From NCBI RefSeq assembly GCF_035917335.1, contig NZ_CP109067.1, positions 6,447,001 through 6,511,000 of the forward strand: a stretch of 64,000 nucleotides of DNA. Direction: 5' to 3'. Under the pieces are notes generated by a model. The model saw only the letters and a program-made list of their open reading frames with translations. It had not been told where the DNA came from and searched no databases. A program made the translations under genes and the position numbers. Of this stretch, positions 17,142 through 25,721 are shown piece by piece. The DNA comes from Micromonospora sp. NBC_01813 (lineage in GTDB: Bacteria; Actinomycetota; Actinomycetes; Mycobacteriales; Micromonosporaceae). The number at the start of each line of letters is the position of its first letter. The first letter of the stretch is position 1.

Positions 17142-18230
17142 TCAGCCGCGCAGCTGGGCGGCGGCCTGCTCCGGACGGACGTCGTTGATGAAAACCCCCA
17201 TCGCCGACTCCGAACCGGCCAGGTACTTCAACTTGTCCACCGCCCGCCGGACGGTGAAGACCTGCAGATGCAGGTAGCCCAACTCGCGGTCGGCGTGCAC
17301 CGGCGCCTGATGCCACGCGGAGATGTACGGAGTGCCCTGCGGTGTGCCGAACAGCCGGTCGAAGCGGGCCAGCACGTCGAGGTACAGCGGGCCGAACGCG
17401 TCCCGCTCGGCGTCGTCGAGCGCGGTGAGGTCCGGCACCTGCCGGTGCGGGGCCAGGTGCACCTCGTACGGCCAGCGGGCCGCCGCCGGCACGTACGCGG
17501 TCCACAGGTCGTTCGCCGCCACCACCCGTTCGCCGTCGGCCCGCTCGGCGGCGAGCACGTCCGCGTACAGGTTGCGTCCGCCGGTCGCCTCGGCGTGCCG
17601 TCGGGCGGCGGCCAGCAACGCCCGGGTACGCGGCGTCACGAACGGGTACGCGTAGATCTGGCCGTGCGGGTGGTGCAGCGTGACACCGATCTCCACCCCC
17701 CGGTTCTCGAAGCAGAACACCTGCTCCACCCCGTCGAGGGTGGACAACTCGGCGGTCCGGTCGGCCAGCGCGTCGAGGACGGTGCGGACCCGGGCCGGTG
17801 GCAGGCCGGCGAACGAGGTGTCGTGCTCGGCGGTGAAGCAGACCACCTCGCAGCGGCCGAGACCGGGCCGGGCCGGGGTGAACGGGGTGATGGCGGGGTA
17901 CCCGCCGACCGGGTCGGCGACCCGGTCGCTCAGCGACGGGAACCGGTTCTCGAAGACCGCCACGTCGTAGTCGTACGCCGGAATCTCACTGGAGCGGCCT
18001 GGCCGCGACGGGCAGAGTGGGCACTGGTCGGTCGGCGGCAGGAACGTCCGGGTCTGCCGGTGTGCCGCGATCGCCACCCACTCGTCGGTCAACGGGTCGT
18101 ACCGCAGCTCGGATGCGGGCGGCGGCGGTGGCAGCTCCCGCAGGTCCGGCCCTTGGCGTACCGCGTCGTCGCGCTCGTCGAAGTAGATCAGCTCCCGCCC
18201 GTCGGCGAGCCGCACCGTGCTGCGTTTCAT
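17142..18230 (-). CDS. galT: Galactose-1-phosphate uridylyltransferase
   Basis: Leloir pathway enzyme exchanging UMP between UDP-glucose and galactose-1-phosphate; 362 residues. CPLCPSRPG is a zinc-site Cys pair, AVFENRFPSL and CENRG-like FENRGVEIG follow, and HHPHGQIYAYPF contains the HxHxQ catalytic motif. AHRQ-like HRQVPDLTALDD is near the C-terminal region. GGAAGG lies just before the ATG. It follows the DeoR-type regulator by 16 bases, so the two form an operon. galK is not adjacent, which is unusual. Confidence 0.95.
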   Translation of the reverse strand: MKRSTVRLADGRELIYFDERDDAVRQGPDLRELPPPPPASELRYDPLTDEWVAIAAHRQTRTFLPPTDQCPLCPSRPGRSSEIPAYDYDVAVFENRFPSLSDRVADPVGGYPAITPFTPARPGLGRCEVVCFTAEHDTSFAGLPPARVRTVLDALADRTAELSTLDGVEQVFCFENRGVEIGVTLHHPHGQIYAYPFVTPRTRALLAAARRHAEATGGRNLYADVLAAERADGERVVAANDLWTAYVPAAARWPYEVHLAPHRQVPDLTALDDAERDAFGPLYLDVLARFDRLFGTPQGTPYISAWHQAPVHADRELGYLHLQVFTVRRAVDKLKYLAGSESAMGVFINDVRPEQAAAQLRG

Positions 18231-18246: not shown

Positions 18247-19023
18247 TCAAGGTTGGTCGGCGATCAGCAGTTCGACGCCGTGGCCGGCGAGGGTGTCACG
18301 GGCGGTCGCAGGCAGCGCCGCGTCGCAGACCAGCACCTGGGCCTCGGACAGCTCGGCCATCGACGAGATGCCGACGGTGCCCCATTTGGTGTGGTCGGCG
18401 AGGACCACCAGGCGGCCGGCCGCCGAGATCAGCGCCCGGTTGGTGTCCGACTCCATCAGGTTCGGCGTGGTGTAGCCGGTCCGTTCGCTCATCCCGTGTA
18501 CGCCGAGGAAGAGCAGGTCGACGTGCAGGCTGCGGACGGCGGCCACGGCCACCGGCCCGACCAGCGCGTCCGACGGGGTGCGTACCCCGCCGGTCAGGAT
18601 GACGGTCTGGTCACCGCGACCGTCGCGGTAGAAGACGTCGGCGGCCGGGATCGAGTTGGTCACCACGGTCAGCCCGGCGACGTCGACCAGGTGGCGGGCG
18701 AGTTCCACCGTGGTGGTGCCGGCGGACAGGGCCACCGCGCCGCCGGGGGAGACGAGTTCGGCGGCGCGGGCGGCGATCGCCACCTTCTCGGCCCGCTGCA
18801 GCGCGGACTTCGCTGCGAAGCCGGGCTCGTCGGTGGCCCCGGAGTCGACCAGCGTGGCCCCGCCGTGCACCTTGGCGAGCAGTCCGCGGTCGGCCAGGAT
18901 GTCGAGGTCGCGGCGGACCGTCATGTCGGAGACCCCGAACTGTGCGGCCAGTTCGCTGACCCGGACCCCGCCGGTGGCCCGAACCCGGTCCAGGATCGCG
19001 GCCTGGCGCTGCGGTGCCAGCAT
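18247..19023 (-). CDS. DeoR-family transcriptional regulator
   Basis: 258 residues. The N-terminal winged HTH (AAILDRVRATGGVRVSELAAQFGVSDMTVRRDLDIL) is the DeoR signature. A sugar-phosphate-sensing domain of the DeoRC type follows, with GGVRTPSDALVGPVA and LFLGVHGMS. These regulators usually repress the sugar operon they precede, and sense a phosphorylated sugar; here galT is directly downstream, so galactose-1-phosphate or a related metabolite is a plausible but unproved effector. ATG at 19023. Confidence 0.92.
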   Translation of the reverse strand: MLAPQRQAAILDRVRATGGVRVSELAAQFGVSDMTVRRDLDILADRGLLAKVHGGATLVDSGATDEPGFAAKSALQRAEKVAIAARAAELVSPGGAVALSAGTTTVELARHLVDVAGLTVVTNSIPAADVFYRDGRGDQTVILTGGVRTPSDALVGPVAVAAVRSLHVDLLFLGVHGMSERTGYTTPNLMESDTNRALISAAGRLVVLADHTKWGTVGISSMAELSEAQVLVCDAALPATARDTLAGHGVELLIADQP

Positions 19024-19113: not shown

Positions 19114-19302
19114 TCACCAGGTGGTGGCGTCCGGGTGCGGCGGCATCCGCCGGCGGGCGACGGTCGGCGACGCGGCGTCCGCCCGGTTCGCCGACCCGGC
19201 CGGCGGCTGGTCGGTAGCCGGCTGATCGTCAGCCGCGCGGTGGTCGTCGGGTCCGGTCGTCGGCGGTACGGGCTGCTGCGGCGCGGACCGATCGAGGGTC
19301 AC
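19114..19302 (-). CDS. 62-residue hydrophilic ORF coupled to sulfotransferase
   Basis: Small gene not recognised. The GTG start overlaps the sulfotransferase stop in GTGA, and a strong GAAGGAG lies five bases upstream inside the end of that gene, the layout of translational coupling. The product is Pro/Ala/Asp/Gln/Thr-rich with no hydrophobic segment and no Cys or Tyr; it ends RRRMPPHPDATTW. It could be a regulatory or substrate peptide of the sulfation cassette, or a fortuitous open frame in GC-rich DNA. The start geometry is the main support. The 90 bases between its stop and the DeoR gene hold no visible terminator. Confidence 0.45.
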   Translation of the reverse strand: MTLDRSAPQQPVPPTTGPDDHRAADDQPATDQPPAGSANRADAASPTVARRRMPPHPDATTW

Positions 19303-20258
19303 GGGGTCTCCTTCTCGGGGGTGGTGGTGCGCCAGACCGGCGGACGGCCGAGCCAGCGGGCGAGTTGCGCGTCGTGCGGGACGAAATGGTCGGACAACTC
19401 CCGGCGGGTACGGGCACCGAGCGGCTCGACCGGCGCGAACCCGACCGGAACCCCGGCCGGCGCGAACCCGGTCGGCGCGAACCCGCCGGGCAGATCCAGC
19501 GGGGTCGGTGGCGTCGTGTCCAGCAGCGGCAGCCCGAGGAACTCGAGCACCTCGGCGTACACCTCGGTCGGTGTCGCCCACAGCCGCTCCGCCTCCACCA
19601 CATGGATCCGCCCCCGGCCGACCTGACCGGCCAGCCGGTCCAGGTAGTCGGCGTACTCACCCCGCTGCCGGTACGCGTGGTGCTGGTGGGCGAAGCTGCG
19701 GTACCCGGCGTCCACCCCGAGCCGCTCCTCCTGGCCGCGTAGCCGCGCCGACTCCAGCGCCAACGCGCGGGCGAACGACGGCTCCGGTTCGTGCCCGGCG
19801 GCCCGCTCGACCCGAAAGTGCGACCAGGCCCGGGCGGCCGGGTCCCGGACCAGCACCAGCAACCGGACGTCGGGCAGATCCCGGGCGATCCGGACCGCCG
19901 CGTACGGGTGGTACAGGTAGTACGGGCTGGTCTCGAAGGCGCTGGCGGTGCCGCCATGGCGTCGCTGCAGCCGTCGGGCGGTGCGCTGACGCGGGAAATG
20001 CCCCCGGTACCAGTCGATGCCGCGCTCGTACGAGACGTCGAAGAAGCTCACCCCGTCCCGTCGCGCGGCCCGCAACACCAGCGGATGCGCGGCGAGCATC
20101 CGGTGCAGCCCGGCGGTCCCGCACCGGTGGCCGCCGCAGATCAGGAACGACGGCAACACCCGGCCCGGCGCGGTCAGTTGGCTGTACGACCAGGTTCGGG
20201 CGTGCGCGATCCGGCGTAGTTGGCGCAGTGGTTGCGGGATCCGGCTGCGAAGCGGCAT
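19299..20258 (-). CDS. PAPS-dependent sulfotransferase
   Basis: Transfers sulfonate from PAPS to a hydroxyl or amine acceptor; 319 residues. The 5'-phosphosulfate loop reads FLICGGHRCGTAGL near residues 39-52 (the family is GxxKxGTT, so Lys is replaced by Arg and the second Thr by Ala). The 3'-phosphate loop is VRDPAARAWSHF. ATG at 20258 has GGAAGGAG upstream; an upstream start at 20312 lacks one. The C-terminal third contains the repetitive GFAPTGFAPAGVPVGFAP. It lies 120 bases downstream of the PAPS-forming fusion and is followed by an overlapping small ORF. The acceptor is unknown. Confidence 0.85.
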   Translation of the reverse strand: MPLRSRIPQPLRQLRRIAHARTWSYSQLTAPGRVLPSFLICGGHRCGTAGLHRMLAAHPLVLRAARRDGVSFFDVSYERGIDWYRGHFPRQRTARRLQRRHGGTASAFETSPYYLYHPYAAVRIARDLPDVRLLVLVRDPAARAWSHFRVERAAGHEPEPSFARALALESARLRGQEERLGVDAGYRSFAHQHHAYRQRGEYADYLDRLAGQVGRGRIHVVEAERLWATPTEVYAEVLEFLGLPLLDTTPPTPLDLPGGFAPTGFAPAGVPVGFAPVEPLGARTRRELSDHFVPHDAQLARWLGRPPVWRTTTPEKETP

Positions 20259-20378
20259 CCGCTTCTCCTTCCACGCGGTGCGGGAAACACCCTCGTGGAG
20301 GTAAACGGGCAATCGGGTGGTAGCGGACTGGCCGGCCAGCGACTTCCCGTCATCTGGAAATCGCCGGTCAGCTGGTGG

Positions 20379-21908
20379 TCAGGCCGGCTGCAGGCGTGGT
20401 TCCACCCAGCCGGTCTCGGTCAGATGGTGCAGCACCGCCTGCACCCCCGCCTCGATGGTCGTTTCGGTGGTGTCCAGCACCAGATCGGCGTCGGTCGGAT
20501 CCTCGTACGGGTCGTCGATGCCGGTCATCCCGGTCAACTGGCCGGCCCGGGCCTTCGCGTACAACCCCTTGCGGTCGCGGGCCTCGCAGACCTGCAACGG
20601 AGTCGCCACCCACACCAGCAGGAAGCCGGCACCAGCGTCGCGGGCCATCTGCCGGGCCGCCGCCCGGGCCTGCTCGTACGGCGCGATCGGGCAGCAGATC
20701 GCCACCCCCTGGTGACGGCCGATCTCGGACGCCACCCAACCGATCCGGCGTACGTTGCGATCCCGGTCCGCCTTGGAGAACGTCAGACCGGCCGACAACT
20801 CGCGGCGGACCACGTCACCGTCGAGCAGGGTGATGGTCCGGTCGCCGCTCTCCCGCAGCGCGTCCGCCACCCCCCGGGCGATCGTCGACTTGCCGGACCC
20901 GGACAGCCCGGTGAAGAACACCACCAGGCCACGGTGCCGGCGCGGCGGCCGTGCCCGGGCCAACTCGCGGGCCACCGCCGGGGGAGTGTGCCACTCCGGC
21001 AGCGGGAAGCCCCGGTCGAGCAGGTCGTCGATCTCCTCCTGGCTCAACGCCAACCGCCGGTTGCGCGGCGGAATGTCCTCCCGCCAGCGCCACTGACCAT
21101 CCCGATTGTCGTAGGCCAGCTCGCGGGGCACCAGCACCCGGGGTCCGCCGCCGGAGAGCATCTCGCCGGTGGAGAGCAGATGGGTCACGCCGTACGCGGC
21201 CGCCACCTTGGCCCGCAGCAGCGCGTCGCGGATCTCGTCGCCGCGGCGGATCAGCGGCACCGCCACCAACGTCGCCGGAGGCATCCGGTCGCGGGCAGCG
21301 AAGACCGTCCGGACCAGCACCTCCGGTGGCAGCCCGCTGATCCCGCTGTCGGCGATCGGGATCAGGATCAGCAGGTGCGCGGCGAGCGTACGGGCCGCGT
21401 GCGCGATCTGGGCCAACTGCGGGCGGTGCAACGGACGGTCGGCGATCACCCCGAGGACCCGCCCCGGCGGCAGCAGCGCCCGTACCTCCTCGGGGTTGCG
21501 GCGTAGCCGCTGGAACGGCCCCTGCTGGCCGTCGCCGAGCCGGCGCACCCGACCGCCGACGGCGGAGAAACCGTCCCGGCTCGGCCAGGCGTCGACGACG
21601 TCCACCGCGGCCACCGGGGCGCCCTCAAGGTCGGTCAGCACCAGCATCCGCAGCAGCGGGTTCGTCAGGTCCAGCCCGGCGATCAGACTGGCCGGCACCT
21701 CCAGGGTGACCGACACCGGCCAGGCGGTGCCGTCGGCCAGCCGGCCCCGGCTGCGCAGCGAGGTCAGGTCCGCGCGAGTGTGGAATCCGCCCAGCGGCGC
21801 GTAGGCGCCGGACAGGATCAGCTCAAGGTCGGCAAGCTCGAACGGCCGCGGCGTGTACGCCGGCGCGTCCCGCAGCACATCGTCAGGCAGCACCCAGCCG
21901 TCGGTCAT
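20379..21908 (-). CDS. ATP-sulfurylase-like / adenylylsulfate kinase fusion
   Basis: 509 residues, two domains. Residues ~1-310 follow the ATP sulfurylase fold (FELADLELILSGAYAPLGGF). The catalytic QxRNPxHxxH motif, however, reads IADRPLHRPQ, and the GRDHAG motif is replaced by STGEML, so sulfate adenylylation is probably lost. Residues ~330-509 are an intact APS kinase: P-loop GLSGSGKST, DGDVVRREL, FSKADRDRNVRRIGWVA and the ADLVLDT end. It therefore most likely phosphorylates APS to PAPS for the downstream sulfotransferase, with APS made elsewhere (for example by CysDN). ATG at 21908 follows GGGGGTGTG; a longer upstream frame is unsupported. Confidence 0.9.
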   Translation of the reverse strand: MTDGWVLPDDVLRDAPAYTPRPFELADLELILSGAYAPLGGFHTRADLTSLRSRGRLADGTAWPVSVTLEVPASLIAGLDLTNPLLRMLVLTDLEGAPVAAVDVVDAWPSRDGFSAVGGRVRRLGDGQQGPFQRLRRNPEEVRALLPPGRVLGVIADRPLHRPQLAQIAHAARTLAAHLLILIPIADSGISGLPPEVLVRTVFAARDRMPPATLVAVPLIRRGDEIRDALLRAKVAAAYGVTHLLSTGEMLSGGGPRVLVPRELAYDNRDGQWRWREDIPPRNRRLALSQEEIDDLLDRGFPLPEWHTPPAVARELARARPPRRHRGLVVFFTGLSGSGKSTIARGVADALRESGDRTITLLDGDVVRRELSAGLTFSKADRDRNVRRIGWVASEIGRHQGVAICCPIAPYEQARAAARQMARDAGAGFLLVWVATPLQVCEARDRKGLYAKARAGQLTGMTGIDDPYEDPTDADLVLDTTETTIEAGVQAVLHHLTETGWVEPRLQPA

Positions 21909-22158: not shown

Positions 22159-23088
22159 GTGAATCTCATCCGAACCGATGCGCTGACGAAGACGTACGGC
22201 GGGCGGGTGACGGCCCTGGCCGACCTGACCGTCGAGGTCCAGCCCGGCATCGTCGGCCTGGTCGGCGCCAACGGCGCCGGCAAGTCGACCCTGATCAAGA
22301 TCCTGCTCGGGCTGCTCGCGCCGACCAGCGGTCAGGCCCGGGTGCTCGATCTGGACCCCACCACCGACGCCGACGCGGTCCGCGCCCGGGTCGGCTACAT
22401 GCCGGAGAACGACTGCCTGCCACCGGACCTGAGCGCCGCCGAGTTCGTCACCCACCTGGGGCGGATCAGCGGGCTGCCGCGCGCCGCCGCCCGGGAACGG
22501 GCCTCCGAGGCGCTACGCCACGTCGGGCTCTACGAGGAGCGCTACCGGCAGATCGGCGGCTACTCCACCGGCATGAAGCAGCGGGTCAAGCTGGCCCAGG
22601 CACTGGTGCACGACCCGGACCTGCTGCTGCTGGACGAGCCGACCAACGGACTCGACCCGGCCGGCCGCGACGCGATGCTGGCGCTGATCCACCGCATCGG
22701 TGCCGAGTTCGGCATCTCGGTGGTGGTCTGCTCCCACCTGCTCGGTGAGGTGGAGCGGATCTGCGACTCGCTGATCGCCATCGAGGGCGGCCGGCTGCTG
22801 CGCTCGGCGCAGCTCTCCGACATGACCACCGTCAGCGACGTGCTCGCCGTCGAGGTCAGCGAAGGCACCGAGGCGCTCGCCGCCCGACTCGCCGCCGAGG
22901 ACCTGCCGGTCACCAGGGAAGGACAACTGCTGCTGGTGCCGGTGGCCGCCGACGGCGGCACCGACGTGCACGACCGGATCCTCACCGCGGTCGTCGAACT
23001 CGACCTGCCGCTGCACCGGCTCGACCAGCGCCGGCACCGGGTCGCCGAACTCTTCGCCACCACGGAGGACACCCGTGCCAACGTCTGA
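22159..23088 (+). CDS. ABC transporter ATP-binding protein
   Basis: 309 residues. Walker A GANGAGKST at ~39-47, signature STGMKQRVKLAQAL, Walker B LLLLDEPTNGLD and the H-loop SHLL are all present. The C-terminal ~90 residues (VLAVEVSEGTEALAARLAAEDL) form the regulatory extension of DRA/CcmA-type exporters. GTG start. The next gene begins inside its last five codons, and four genes follow in line as two ATPase-permease pairs, so it probably energises an ABC-2 exporter of unknown substrate. Confidence 0.93.
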   Translation: MNLIRTDALTKTYGGRVTALADLTVEVQPGIVGLVGANGAGKSTLIKILLGLLAPTSGQARVLDLDPTTDADAVRARVGYMPENDCLPPDLSAAEFVTHLGRISGLPRAAARERASEALRHVGLYEERYRQIGGYSTGMKQRVKLAQALVHDPDLLLLDEPTNGLDPAGRDAMLALIHRIGAEFGISVVVCSHLLGEVERICDSLIAIEGGRLLRSAQLSDMTTVSDVLAVEVSEGTEALAARLAAEDLPVTREGQLLLVPVAADGGTDVHDRILTAVVELDLPLHRLDQRRHRVAELFATTEDTRANV

Positions 23089-24009
23089 TCAGCTCACCGC
23101 CGCCGCCAGCGCGGCCCCGGCCAGGTCCCAGGCCCCGGCCGGCGTCATCCACGACATCGGCTACCAGCGGTACGCCGGGACCCGGCTCGGCCGCCGGCAC
23201 GTCGTCGGCGCGTTGTACGCGCACAGCCTGCGTGCCGCCTTCGGGCTGGGCCGCAGCGCCAAGGCCAAGATCTTCCCCTGGTTCATCGTCGCCATCGTGG
23301 TGGCGGTCGCCGCCGGTCTGGTCGCCATCCGCGCCCAACTGGGCGAGGTGATCCTGCACTACGCGCAGTTCGCCGACGCGATGAGCTGGCTGGTGATCTT
23401 CTTCGTCGCGGTGGTCGCCCCGGAGTTGGTCTCCCGCGACCTGGGCAGCGGCGTACTGCCGCTGTACTTCTCCCGACCGCTACGGATCGCCGACTACCCG
23501 CTGGCCAAGTTCGCCGCGCTCGCCACCGCCGTGTTCATACTGCTCGGCGTCCCGCAGCTGGTGATGTTCCTCGGCGGCGCGTTCACCACCGAAACTGGCT
23601 GGTCCGGGGTGTGGAACGAAGTCACCGACCTGGCGCCCGGCCTGGTGTACGCCCTGCTGTGGGCCGCCGTGTTCAGCGCCATCGGGCTGACGGTCGCCTC
23701 GGTCACCGGCAAGCGGGCCTTCGCCGCCGGTGGAATCGTCGCCGTTTTCCTGATGACCACCCCGATCGTCGGGGTGCTATCGGTGCTGCCGTCGGTCACC
23801 GCCAACGAGCTCGCCGGCCTGGCCGCCCCGTCCAGCCTGGTGCAGGGCACCGGCCTGTGGCTGTTCCGCGACGCGCTGATCACCGGTCCCGAGGACCTCG
23901 GTGGGATCGGCATCGGCGGCTTCGGCCCGGTGTACGGCCTGGTCACCGTCGCGTTGATCGCCGGCTGTGTCGTAGCCCTGCTCGCCCGCTACCGGAAGGC
24001 GGCCCGTCG

Positions 24010-24013
<4 letters not shown>
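23075..24013 (+). CDS. ABC-2 type permease
   Basis: 312 residues. A soluble N-terminus with GYQRYAGTRLGRRHVVGALYAHSLRAAFGLGRSAK precedes six predicted membrane segments, from FIVAIVVAVAAGLVAI to LVTVALIAGCVVALLARY. Between segments 2 and 3 lie DLGSGVLPLYFSRPL and YPLAKFAAL, the cytoplasmic coupling region typical of ABC-2 permeases. The GTG start at 23075 has GGAGG six bases upstream and overlaps the ATPase gene by 14 bases; its stop overlaps the next start in ATGA. Confidence 0.92.
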
Positions 24014-25002
<989 letters not shown>

Positions 25003-25007
25003 CCGCC

Positions 25008-25721
25008 GTGAACTCGACCATCATGTGGATCACCGCGCGCGGGCTGTTCGGCCGCCGCCGGTTCCTGCTCCTGCTGCCGCTACCGGCGCTGGTGATCGTG
25101 CTCGCGGTGCTGTGCCGGTCCCTCGGGGTCGCCCCGAGCAACTGGGCACAGCCGGTGCTGATCGCGCTGGGCTTGGCCGTCGTGCTACCCGTCGTCGCAC
25201 TGATCGTCGGCACCGGCGTGCTCGGCTCGGAGATCGACGACGGCACCATCGTGCACGTGCTGAGTAAGCCGCTGCCGCGCTGGCAGATCGTGCTACCGAA
25301 GCTGGTCGTCGCCGTCGGCGTCACCGCGCTCACCGTCGCGGTGCCGCTCTACGTGGCCGGAGTGCTCGCCGAGTCGGTCCGGCTCGGCCTGGCCCTGGCC
25401 GCCGCGAGCGCCCTGGGCGCGCTGGCGTACTCGGCGTTCTTCGTGGCGTTGAGCCTGGTCACCCGCAGGCCGGTGCTACTCGGCCTGGTCTACGTACTGG
25501 TCTGGGAAGGGCTGCTGGGCAACTTCGTCTCCGGCACCCGGGTGCTCTCCATCCAGCAGTACGTGATCACCTTCGCCGACCAGATCGCCGCCACCCCGCT
25601 CTTCGACGGCCAGGTGTCGGTCACCGTCTCGGCGATCATGACCGCGGTGATCGCGGTCGCCTTCACCCTGCTCGCCATCGACCGGCTGCGTTCGTTCAGC
25701 GTGGCCGGCGAGACCAGCTGA
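25008..25721 (+). CDS. ABC-2 type permease
   Basis: 237 residues, six predicted membrane segments starting RRFLLLLPLPALVIVLAVL and ending AVIAVAFTLLAI. EIDDGTIVHVLSKPLPRWQIVLPKL is the conserved cytoplasmic loop of ABC-2 permeases (substrate-independent). GTG start six bases after the second ATPase gene. It closes the exporter operon; a bidirectional terminator follows at 25747. Confidence 0.9.
   Translation: MNSTIMWITARGLFGRRRFLLLLPLPALVIVLAVLCRSLGVAPSNWAQPVLIALGLAVVLPVVALIVGTGVLGSEIDDGTIVHVLSKPLPRWQIVLPKLVVAVGVTALTVAVPLYVAGVLAESVRLGLALAAASALGALAYSAFFVALSLVTRRPVLLGLVYVLVWEGLLGNFVSGTRVLSIQQYVITFADQIAATPLFDGQVSVTVSAIMTAVIAVAFTLLAIDRLRSFSVAGETS

What the first reader, a model, noticed from the sequence alone, without database searches (positions are those of the whole stretch)
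19114..21908. Sulfation cassette with a degenerate ATP-sulfurylase half and a coupled 62-residue ORF
Seen: in the fusion protein, the sulfurylase QxRNPxHxxH motif is IADRPLHRPQ and GRDHAG is STGEML, while all APS-kinase motifs are intact. A sulfotransferase follows on the same strand, and a small ORF overlaps its stop in GTGA with a strong GAAGGAG. Known: both sulfurylase motifs bind ATP and sulfate in active enzymes. Inference: the N-terminal fold is kept for structure or allostery, as in fungal sulfurylase where the kinase half is the dead one. The unit would then be a dedicated PAPS supply plus sulfotransferase for an unknown acceptor, with the small peptide as possible substrate or regulator.
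Basis: partly seen in the sequence, partly recalled or inferred. Interest (0 to 1): 0.72.

Follow-up and report, generated by a model that had tools for sequence, protein, structure and literature searches.

The report
APS kinase carrying a dead domain
This actinobacterium, like nearly all of its bacterial family, makes its sulfation donor with an enzyme that still carries a worn-out second enzyme domain, an arrangement already known from two other organisms, while the tiny gene beside it is probably not a gene at all.

Summary
The motif reading is right. Window 20379-21908 (-) encodes an N-terminal ATP-sulfurylase fold without QxRNxxHxxH and GRDHAG, joined to a complete APS kinase. The motifs are replaced in place, not shifted. 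This is a known kind: Thiobacillus denitrificans APS kinase (PDB 3CR8, closest by sequence) and Entamoeba APS kinase (23VK); in the latter the dead domain raises kinase turnover. New here is the distribution: 149 of 150 family genomes sampled, 44 of 44 genera; the only strong APS-kinase match in 19 of 19 family genomes examined; ADRPLHRPQ in 87 of 87 closer orthologs (12 of 20 more distant ones). APS presumably comes from a separate CysDN. So it looks like the general PAPS source, not one dedicated to the neighbouring sulfotransferase, which sits directly downstream only in this genus (6 of 7 genomes; a remnant in the seventh). In 20 of 80 named relatives the kinase precedes a conserved polysaccharide cluster with a related sulfotransferase, pointing to a glycan acceptor.

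The parts
20379..21908 (-). two-domain APS kinase (509 aa): ATP-sulfurylase-like domain without catalytic motifs + linker + APS kinase
21144..21908 (-). N-terminal sulfurylase-like domain, residues 1-255
21417..21446 (-). IADRPLHRPQ in place of QxRNxxHxxH
21156..21173 (-). STGEML in place of GRDHAG
20943..21143 (-). interdomain linker, residues 256-322, with RDGQWR; the most constrained part
   Evidence: 58% invariant in 87 orthologs; median dN/dS 0.054; RDGQWR in 87 of 87 and 20 of 20
20424..20942 (-). APS kinase domain, residues 323-495
   Evidence: PF01583 E 4.7e-55
19299..20258 (-). sulfotransferase, 319 aa from ATG (TTG at 20312 also possible)
   Evidence: PF00685/PF13469 above cut-off; core median dN/dS 0.136
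19114..19302 (-). 62-codon ORF; not supported as a gene
19150..19316 (-). approximate stretch with the net 161 bp present only in this strain at the sulfotransferase 3' end (boundaries depend on the alignment)
18247..19023 (-). DeoR/GlpR-type regulator, downstream neighbour, probably unrelated
   Evidence: deoR hit in 43 of 80 named loci, some with short flanks
17142..18230 (-). galT-type uridylyltransferase, downstream neighbour, probably unrelated
   Evidence: galT hit in 50 of 80 named loci, some with short flanks

Best explanation
The fusion is the cell's general APS kinase. CysD-CysN, encoded elsewhere, makes APS from ATP and sulfate. The C-terminal domain of the fusion phosphorylates APS to PAPS. 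Several sulfotransferases, including the one encoded just downstream, use the PAPS, and a CysQ-like protein encoded beside CysDN would remove PAP. The N-terminal sulfurylase fold lost its own chemistry before the family radiated and is kept because it positions or stabilises the kinase, as proposed for Thiobacillus and Entamoeba APS kinase. The neighbouring sulfotransferase most likely sulfates a cell-surface or secreted polysaccharide. The 62-codon ORF is a by-product of an insertion/frameshift in the fast-drifting 3' end of the sulfotransferase gene. Shown: motif loss, predicted fold, constraint, gene content, distribution, and lack of conservation of the small ORF. Inferred: enzyme activities, the role of the dead domain, the flow of APS and PAPS, and the glycan acceptor.
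For: Motif columns and fold. Closest PDB sequence 3CR8, whose own motif reads QARQPMHRAQ and shares the second His-to-Gln change. Purifying selection: median dN/dS 0.168 and 0.125 in the two parts of the dead domain, 0.054 in the linker, 0.114 in the kinase. One strong APS-kinase match per genome in 19 of 19 family genomes. In 19 of 19 the sulfurylase family matches only the fusion above cut-off. CysD, CysN without a fused kinase, and a CysQ-like protein lie together in the own genome; CysH lies elsewhere. Present in 149 of 150 family genomes. Polysaccharide cluster in 20 of 20 linked loci. Small ORF. Entamoeba enzyme: removing the dead domain lowers kcat about 100-fold (PMC13213808 section 10).
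Against: No activity was or could be measured. The Entamoeba authors say part of the loss on removing the dead domain may be destabilisation, and they report different proposed roles in Thiobacillus (hexamer stability) and Entamoeba (activation), so the role here is open. The Tyr133 that matters in Entamoeba seems to correspond to Gly130 here (read by eye from the alignments, not computed), so that exact contact is probably absent. Four of 19 family genomes have further weak APS_kinase matches (21-25 bits, cut-off 21.1), taken here as other P-loop kinases but not examined. The best NCBIfam hit of CysH is named phosphoadenylyl-sulfate reductase; if it used PAPS, the kinase would also serve cysteine synthesis. 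The glycan acceptor rests on gene neighbourhood in other genera; in this genus the cluster genes are not at the locus. The small ORF has third-position GC of 0.90, like real genes here, although its second-position GC of 0.68 is above that of all genes called in the window (0.43-0.64).
Confidence: 0.85

Rival explanations
1. The N-terminal domain still has weak or altered sulfurylase activity (for example in the reverse, APS-degrading direction).
For: Pro159 and His161 of the motif and the whole fold are kept; the domain still passes the Pfam ATP-sulfurylase cut-off.
Against: The residues that contact sulfate, the alpha-phosphate and the ribose in A. vinosum ATP sulfurylase (Gln199, Thr200, Arg201, Asn202, the GRD loop; PMC3779200 passages) are all changed; about 25 residues after the GRD loop are missing; CysDN is present.
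Confidence: 0.05
2. A dedicated sulfation cassette: the kinase serves mainly the adjacent sulfotransferase, with the small peptide as substrate or regulator.
For: Adjacent and same strand in 6 of 7 genus genomes; sulfotransferase core under purifying selection.
Against: Only one strong APS-kinase match in the genome but nine other sulfotransferase-like genes over the cut-off; the kinase persists where the sulfotransferase is reduced to a remnant (L007) and in 44 of 80 named loci with no homolog in the 6.5 kb or more read downstream; small ORF absent in 6 of 6 congeners.
Confidence: 0.07
3. The dead domain docks the CysDN complex and receives APS directly (channelling).
For: Pairing, in 19 of 19 family genomes, of a single strong APS kinase with at least two separately encoded CysD/CysH-family matches; strong constraint on the linker and the dead first loop.
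Against: No direct evidence; the genes are far apart in the own genome.
Confidence: 0.12

Closest known systems
Thiobacillus denitrificans two-domain hexameric APS kinase (PDB 3CR8; Gay et al. 2009)
   Different: 38% identity over the aligned residues; the Thiobacillus motif keeps Q and R (QARQPMHRAQ), here both are gone (IADRPLHRPQ); oligomeric state here unknown.
Entamoeba histolytica APS kinase (PDB 23VK/23VL; PMC13213808, PMC6715247)
   Same: Inactive sulfurylase-like domain fused N-terminally to an active APS kinase.
   Different: Eukaryotic, placed in mitosomes; its Tyr133-Glu90 contact is probably not present here (by eye).
Bifunctional PAPS synthetase with sulfurylase and kinase (Aquifex 2GKS; NCBIfam PRK05537)
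   Same: Domain order and fold.
   Different: The NCBIfam model scores 384.6 against a cut-off of 669; sulfurylase motifs absent here.
Fungal ATP sulfurylase (P. chrysogenum 1I2D)
   Different: There the kinase half is inactive and regulatory (passages of PMC13213808, and recall); here the sulfurylase half has lost its motifs.

Membership tests
Two-domain APS kinase with dead sulfurylase-like domain (3CR8/23VK kind) | Sulfurylase fold N-terminal to APS kinase in one chain | tested here: met
   (fold from a predicted model)
Two-domain APS kinase with dead sulfurylase-like domain (3CR8/23VK kind) | Sulfurylase catalytic motifs lost | tested here: met
   QxRNxxHxxH and GRDHAG in 0 of 87 orthologs and 0 of 20 more divergent family members
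Two-domain APS kinase with dead sulfurylase-like domain (3CR8/23VK kind) | Substrate-binding loop absent and pocket closed by a short linker, as described for the Entamoeba enzyme | tested here: inconclusive
   about 25 residues after the GRD loop are missing in the alignment; pocket geometry not examined
Two-domain APS kinase with dead sulfurylase-like domain (3CR8/23VK kind) | Kinase motifs intact | tested here: met
Two-domain APS kinase with dead sulfurylase-like domain (3CR8/23VK kind) | APS kinase activity present, sulfurylase activity absent | not testable with these tools
   needs purified protein
Bifunctional sulfurylase/APS kinase (NCBIfam NF004040, PRK05537) | Score above the curated cut-off and sulfurylase motifs present | tested here: not met
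   384.6 bits against 669; motifs absent
Fungal-type ATP sulfurylase with dead kinase half | Sulfurylase motifs present, kinase motifs degenerate | tested here: not met
   the reverse pattern
PAPS-dependent sulfotransferase (PF00685/PF13469) | Profile match above gathering score | tested here: met
   39.7 against 22 and 39.1 against 27 bits
PAPS-dependent sulfotransferase (PF00685/PF13469) | Transfers sulfate from PAPS to an acceptor | not testable with these tools
   needs purified protein
Conserved small peptide gene coupled to the sulfotransferase | ORF conserved in relatives | tested here: not met
   0 of 6 congeners

The most novel reading that the evidence does not exclude
The dead sulfurylase site has been rebuilt rather than merely lost. 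Its replaced first loop reads ADRPLHRPQ in 87 of 87 closer orthologs (12 of 20 more divergent ones; HRPQ/HRPD in 20 of 20), and the linker motif RDGQWR holds in 87 of 87 and 20 of 20, while the second dead loop drifts. So the pocket may now bind a nucleotide or CysDN and control or feed the kinase: a mirror image of fungal ATP sulfurylase, where a dead kinase controls a live sulfurylase.
Probability: 0.15. Interest if true: 0.6.

Novelty: new member of a known kind. Interest (0 to 1): 0.35.

Why it matters
A whole actinobacterial family appears to rely on a two-domain APS kinase with a dead sulfurylase half as its main, perhaps only, PAPS source. Other lineages of the phylum have N-terminal halves with intact motifs or even more reduced ones. 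That gives a natural series for asking what the dead domain does, a question the 2026 Entamoeba paper still calls open in its details. It also warns against annotating these genes as bifunctional PAPS synthetases. The kinase's place ahead of a conserved polysaccharide cluster in 20 of 80 named relatives points to a sulfated glycan in these bacteria worth looking for.

Tried and rejected
Shifted motifs: rejected, because the columns align one to one with intact outgroup motifs. A second Sat gene supplying APS: in 19 of 19 family genomes PF01747 matches only the fusion above its cut-off; G015 has one further weak match below it, and the second match in G018 lies in the fusion's own frame. The insert as a repeated or mobile element: the 171-bp query finds only itself strongly among 48 matches listed; the next is 77% identity over about 77 bp at E 7.5e-6, which I take as chance in GC-rich DNA, and the repeat finder showed no repeat that explains it. 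The number of independent losses of the sulfurylase motifs in the phylum is not resolved: the deep order of the kinase-domain tree is open and only the Micromonosporaceae group is firm (100/99). A contact test between the dead pocket and the linker was not done, because model coordinates were not among the files for scripts (one search lists them). One search chose the antisense frame for several of 20 fetched genes; it was redone with frames chosen by alignment, and only one search is used. A gene called on the minus strand in the polysaccharide cluster (X336) is antisense to a plus-strand gene seen. The dN/dS values are medians of pairwise NG86 estimates with no formal test. One congener (L002) has a different 47-codon ORF across the same place; it does not resemble the window's ORF. 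Published work: listings of searches of the held library showed no report of this protein in Micromonosporaceae; the library lacks most subscription journals, and Gay et al. 2009 itself was not held.
Full report
What is there. The fusion ORF (20379-21908, minus strand, 509 aa) matches PUA_2, ATP-sulfurylase and APS_kinase in Pfam above cut-off. The sulfotransferase (19299-20258 from its ATG) matches PF00685 and PF13469 above cut-off. The 62-codon ORF overlaps its stop as GTGA with AAGGAG upstream and matches no Pfam or NCBIfam family.

The motifs are lost, not shifted. In an alignment of 37 proteins, IADRPLHRPQ sits on QTRNPMHRAH and STGEML on GRDHAG of two-domain enzymes from other actinobacterial lineages; about 25 residues after the GRD loop and another segment of about 25 residues are missing. 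Of 28 outgroup loci from the phylum scan (L101-L128), 14 carry both intact motifs in the kinase's frame, five (L114, L116-L119) have an N-terminal part without them, and nine are kinase-sized frames. Residues that hold sulfate, the alpha-phosphate and ribose in A. vinosum ATP sulfurylase (Gln199, Thr200, Arg201, Asn202 and the GRD loop; PMC3779200, passages) are therefore replaced. In 87 of 87 orthologs (the 80 best of 320 named genome hits, plus 7 genomes of the genus) the first loop reads xADRPLHRPQ, while STGEML holds in 51 of 87. In 20 further family members at 56-74% identity, exact ADRPLHRPQ is present in 12 of 20, HRPQ or HRPD in 20 of 20, and the sulfurylase motifs in 0 of 20. The loss thus probably predates the spread of the family.

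The dead domain is under constraint. Median pairwise dN/dS over 21 pairs of seven genus genomes is 0.168 (residues 1-120), 0.125 (121-255), 0.054 (linker 256-322) and 0.114 (kinase).

Known precedents. The Thiobacillus enzyme is an APS kinase without sulfurylase activity (title of Gay et al. 2009, seen in reference lists; the paper itself is not held). Its dead domain is proposed to stabilise a hexamer (PMC13213808, passages and section 11). In Entamoeba APS kinase (PMC13213808, abstract, passages and sections 8, 10 and 11 read; PMC6715247, passages) removing the dead domain lowers kcat about 100-fold, and single changes at its contact lower it 21- to 60-fold, with the caveat that the truncated protein aggregates.

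Role in the cell. At E up to 1e-100, P0001 matches 149 of 150 family genomes sampled and 44 of 44 genera, a few of them in part only. In a sample of 396 genomes of the phylum 221 have some match, but only two listed rows, both of this family, cover the whole protein. In 19 of 19 family genomes searched there is one strong APS_kinase match, at the fusion; four of these genomes (G008, G014, G016, G018) also have weak matches of 21-25 bits, at or over the 21.1-bit cut-off, which I take for other P-loop kinases but did not examine. PF01747 matches only the fusion above cut-off in 19 of 19. At least two PF01507 matches (CysD/CysH type) occur in 19 of 19. In the own genome CysD, CysN (432 aa, no fused kinase) and a CysQ-like protein (79.5 bits, below its 228.8 cut-off) lie together, and CysH lies elsewhere beside a nitrite/sulfite-reductase-type gene. 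CysH carries CC and CxxC, the pattern I recall for APS rather than PAPS reductases; against that, its best NCBIfam hit above cut-off is named phosphoadenylyl-sulfate reductase, and it falls below the cut-off of the APS-reductase model. If CysH uses APS, PAPS is needed for sulfation only (inference). PF13469 matches 14 places in the own genome; eleven count as over the cut-off, two of these are pieces of one frame and one is the gene studied here, which leaves nine other sulfotransferase-like genes. This argues for a general PAPS source.

The sulfotransferase. It lies directly downstream in six genus genomes, the own one included; the seventh keeps only a C-terminal remnant. Of the 80 named loci, 20 have a homolog (49-57% identity) 4.4-6.5 kb downstream, 44 have none in the 6.5 kb or more read, and 16 have too little flank (the 17th short locus there is the congener L007). 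In 20 of 20 linked loci Wzz, Wzy/ligase-like, a kinase-like protein (aminoglycoside-phosphotransferase type by eye), sulfotransferase and MatE homologs follow in this order, about 2 kb further from the kinase in L008 and L017 than in the other 18; two more loci have Wzz without a sulfotransferase hit. The own genome has a related cluster at 3.46 Mb (Wzz 27%, Wzy 31%, MatE 35%, sulfotransferase 42%, kinase-like 33% identity to the L037 proteins) without an APS kinase (Pfam itself finds no domain in the Wzz-like protein). Wzz-like and sulfotransferase matches 4.3-4.7 kb apart, start to start, occur in 7 of 7 genus genomes. Of 14 PDB hits of the sulfotransferase, one is a bacterial sulfotransferase (3rnl) and 13 are heparan-sulfate sulfotransferases. 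A glycan acceptor is therefore the best guess. The core is under constraint (median dN/dS 0.136, 15 pairs) but the C-terminal end is loose (0.555).

The small ORF. Aligning the 3' end of the gene in seven genus genomes shows a stretch only in this strain, 161 bp net, a length that shifts the frame (236 against 75 bases between the same landmarks, from the coordinates). The last 11 residues of the small ORF (RMPPHPDATTW) come from DNA that two congeners (L002, L005) read as the C-terminus of the sulfotransferase itself. Six of six congeners lack the ORF. An ORF of this length is expected: 447 of 847 NTGA sites in the window have at least 62 open codons after them. Its composition is low-complexity (12 Pro, 11 Ala, 8 Asp of 62). 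Its GC by codon position is 0.79/0.68/0.90: the third position looks like a gene's, the second does not (genes called in the window 0.43-0.64).

Verdict. Real and correctly read motif loss in a new, family-wide member of a known kind; the 'dedicated cassette' view is weak and the small gene is not supported.

Noticed in passing
L114, L116, L117, L118, L119 (other actinobacterial lineages): APS kinases whose N-terminal half is even more reduced than in Micromonosporaceae and has no intact sulfurylase motif; possibly further stages of decay.
   Followed up: partly
L007 (same-genus genome G003), downstream of the APS kinase: Only a C-terminal remnant of the sulfotransferase remains, so the gene is dispensable in this genus.
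   Followed up: partly
G446, G471, G503 (one genus): The APS-kinase gene is matched in two pieces in three genomes; a break or assembly indels are possible.
   Followed up: no
L151 (own genome 130000-146000): A second polysaccharide-type region with several sulfotransferase genes, a flippase-like protein and a glycosyltransferase.
   Followed up: partly
window 19427-19490: Threefold 22-nt repeat near the sulfotransferase 3' end (GFAP-type residues), in a segment that the five aligned congeners lack or read differently; part of a fast-drifting C-terminus.
   Followed up: partly
window 22159-25721: Divergently transcribed ABC-transporter-type genes (two ATPases, two membrane-protein-like ORFs) beside the kinase, also near it in many loci (not counted); substrate unknown.
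   Followed up: no
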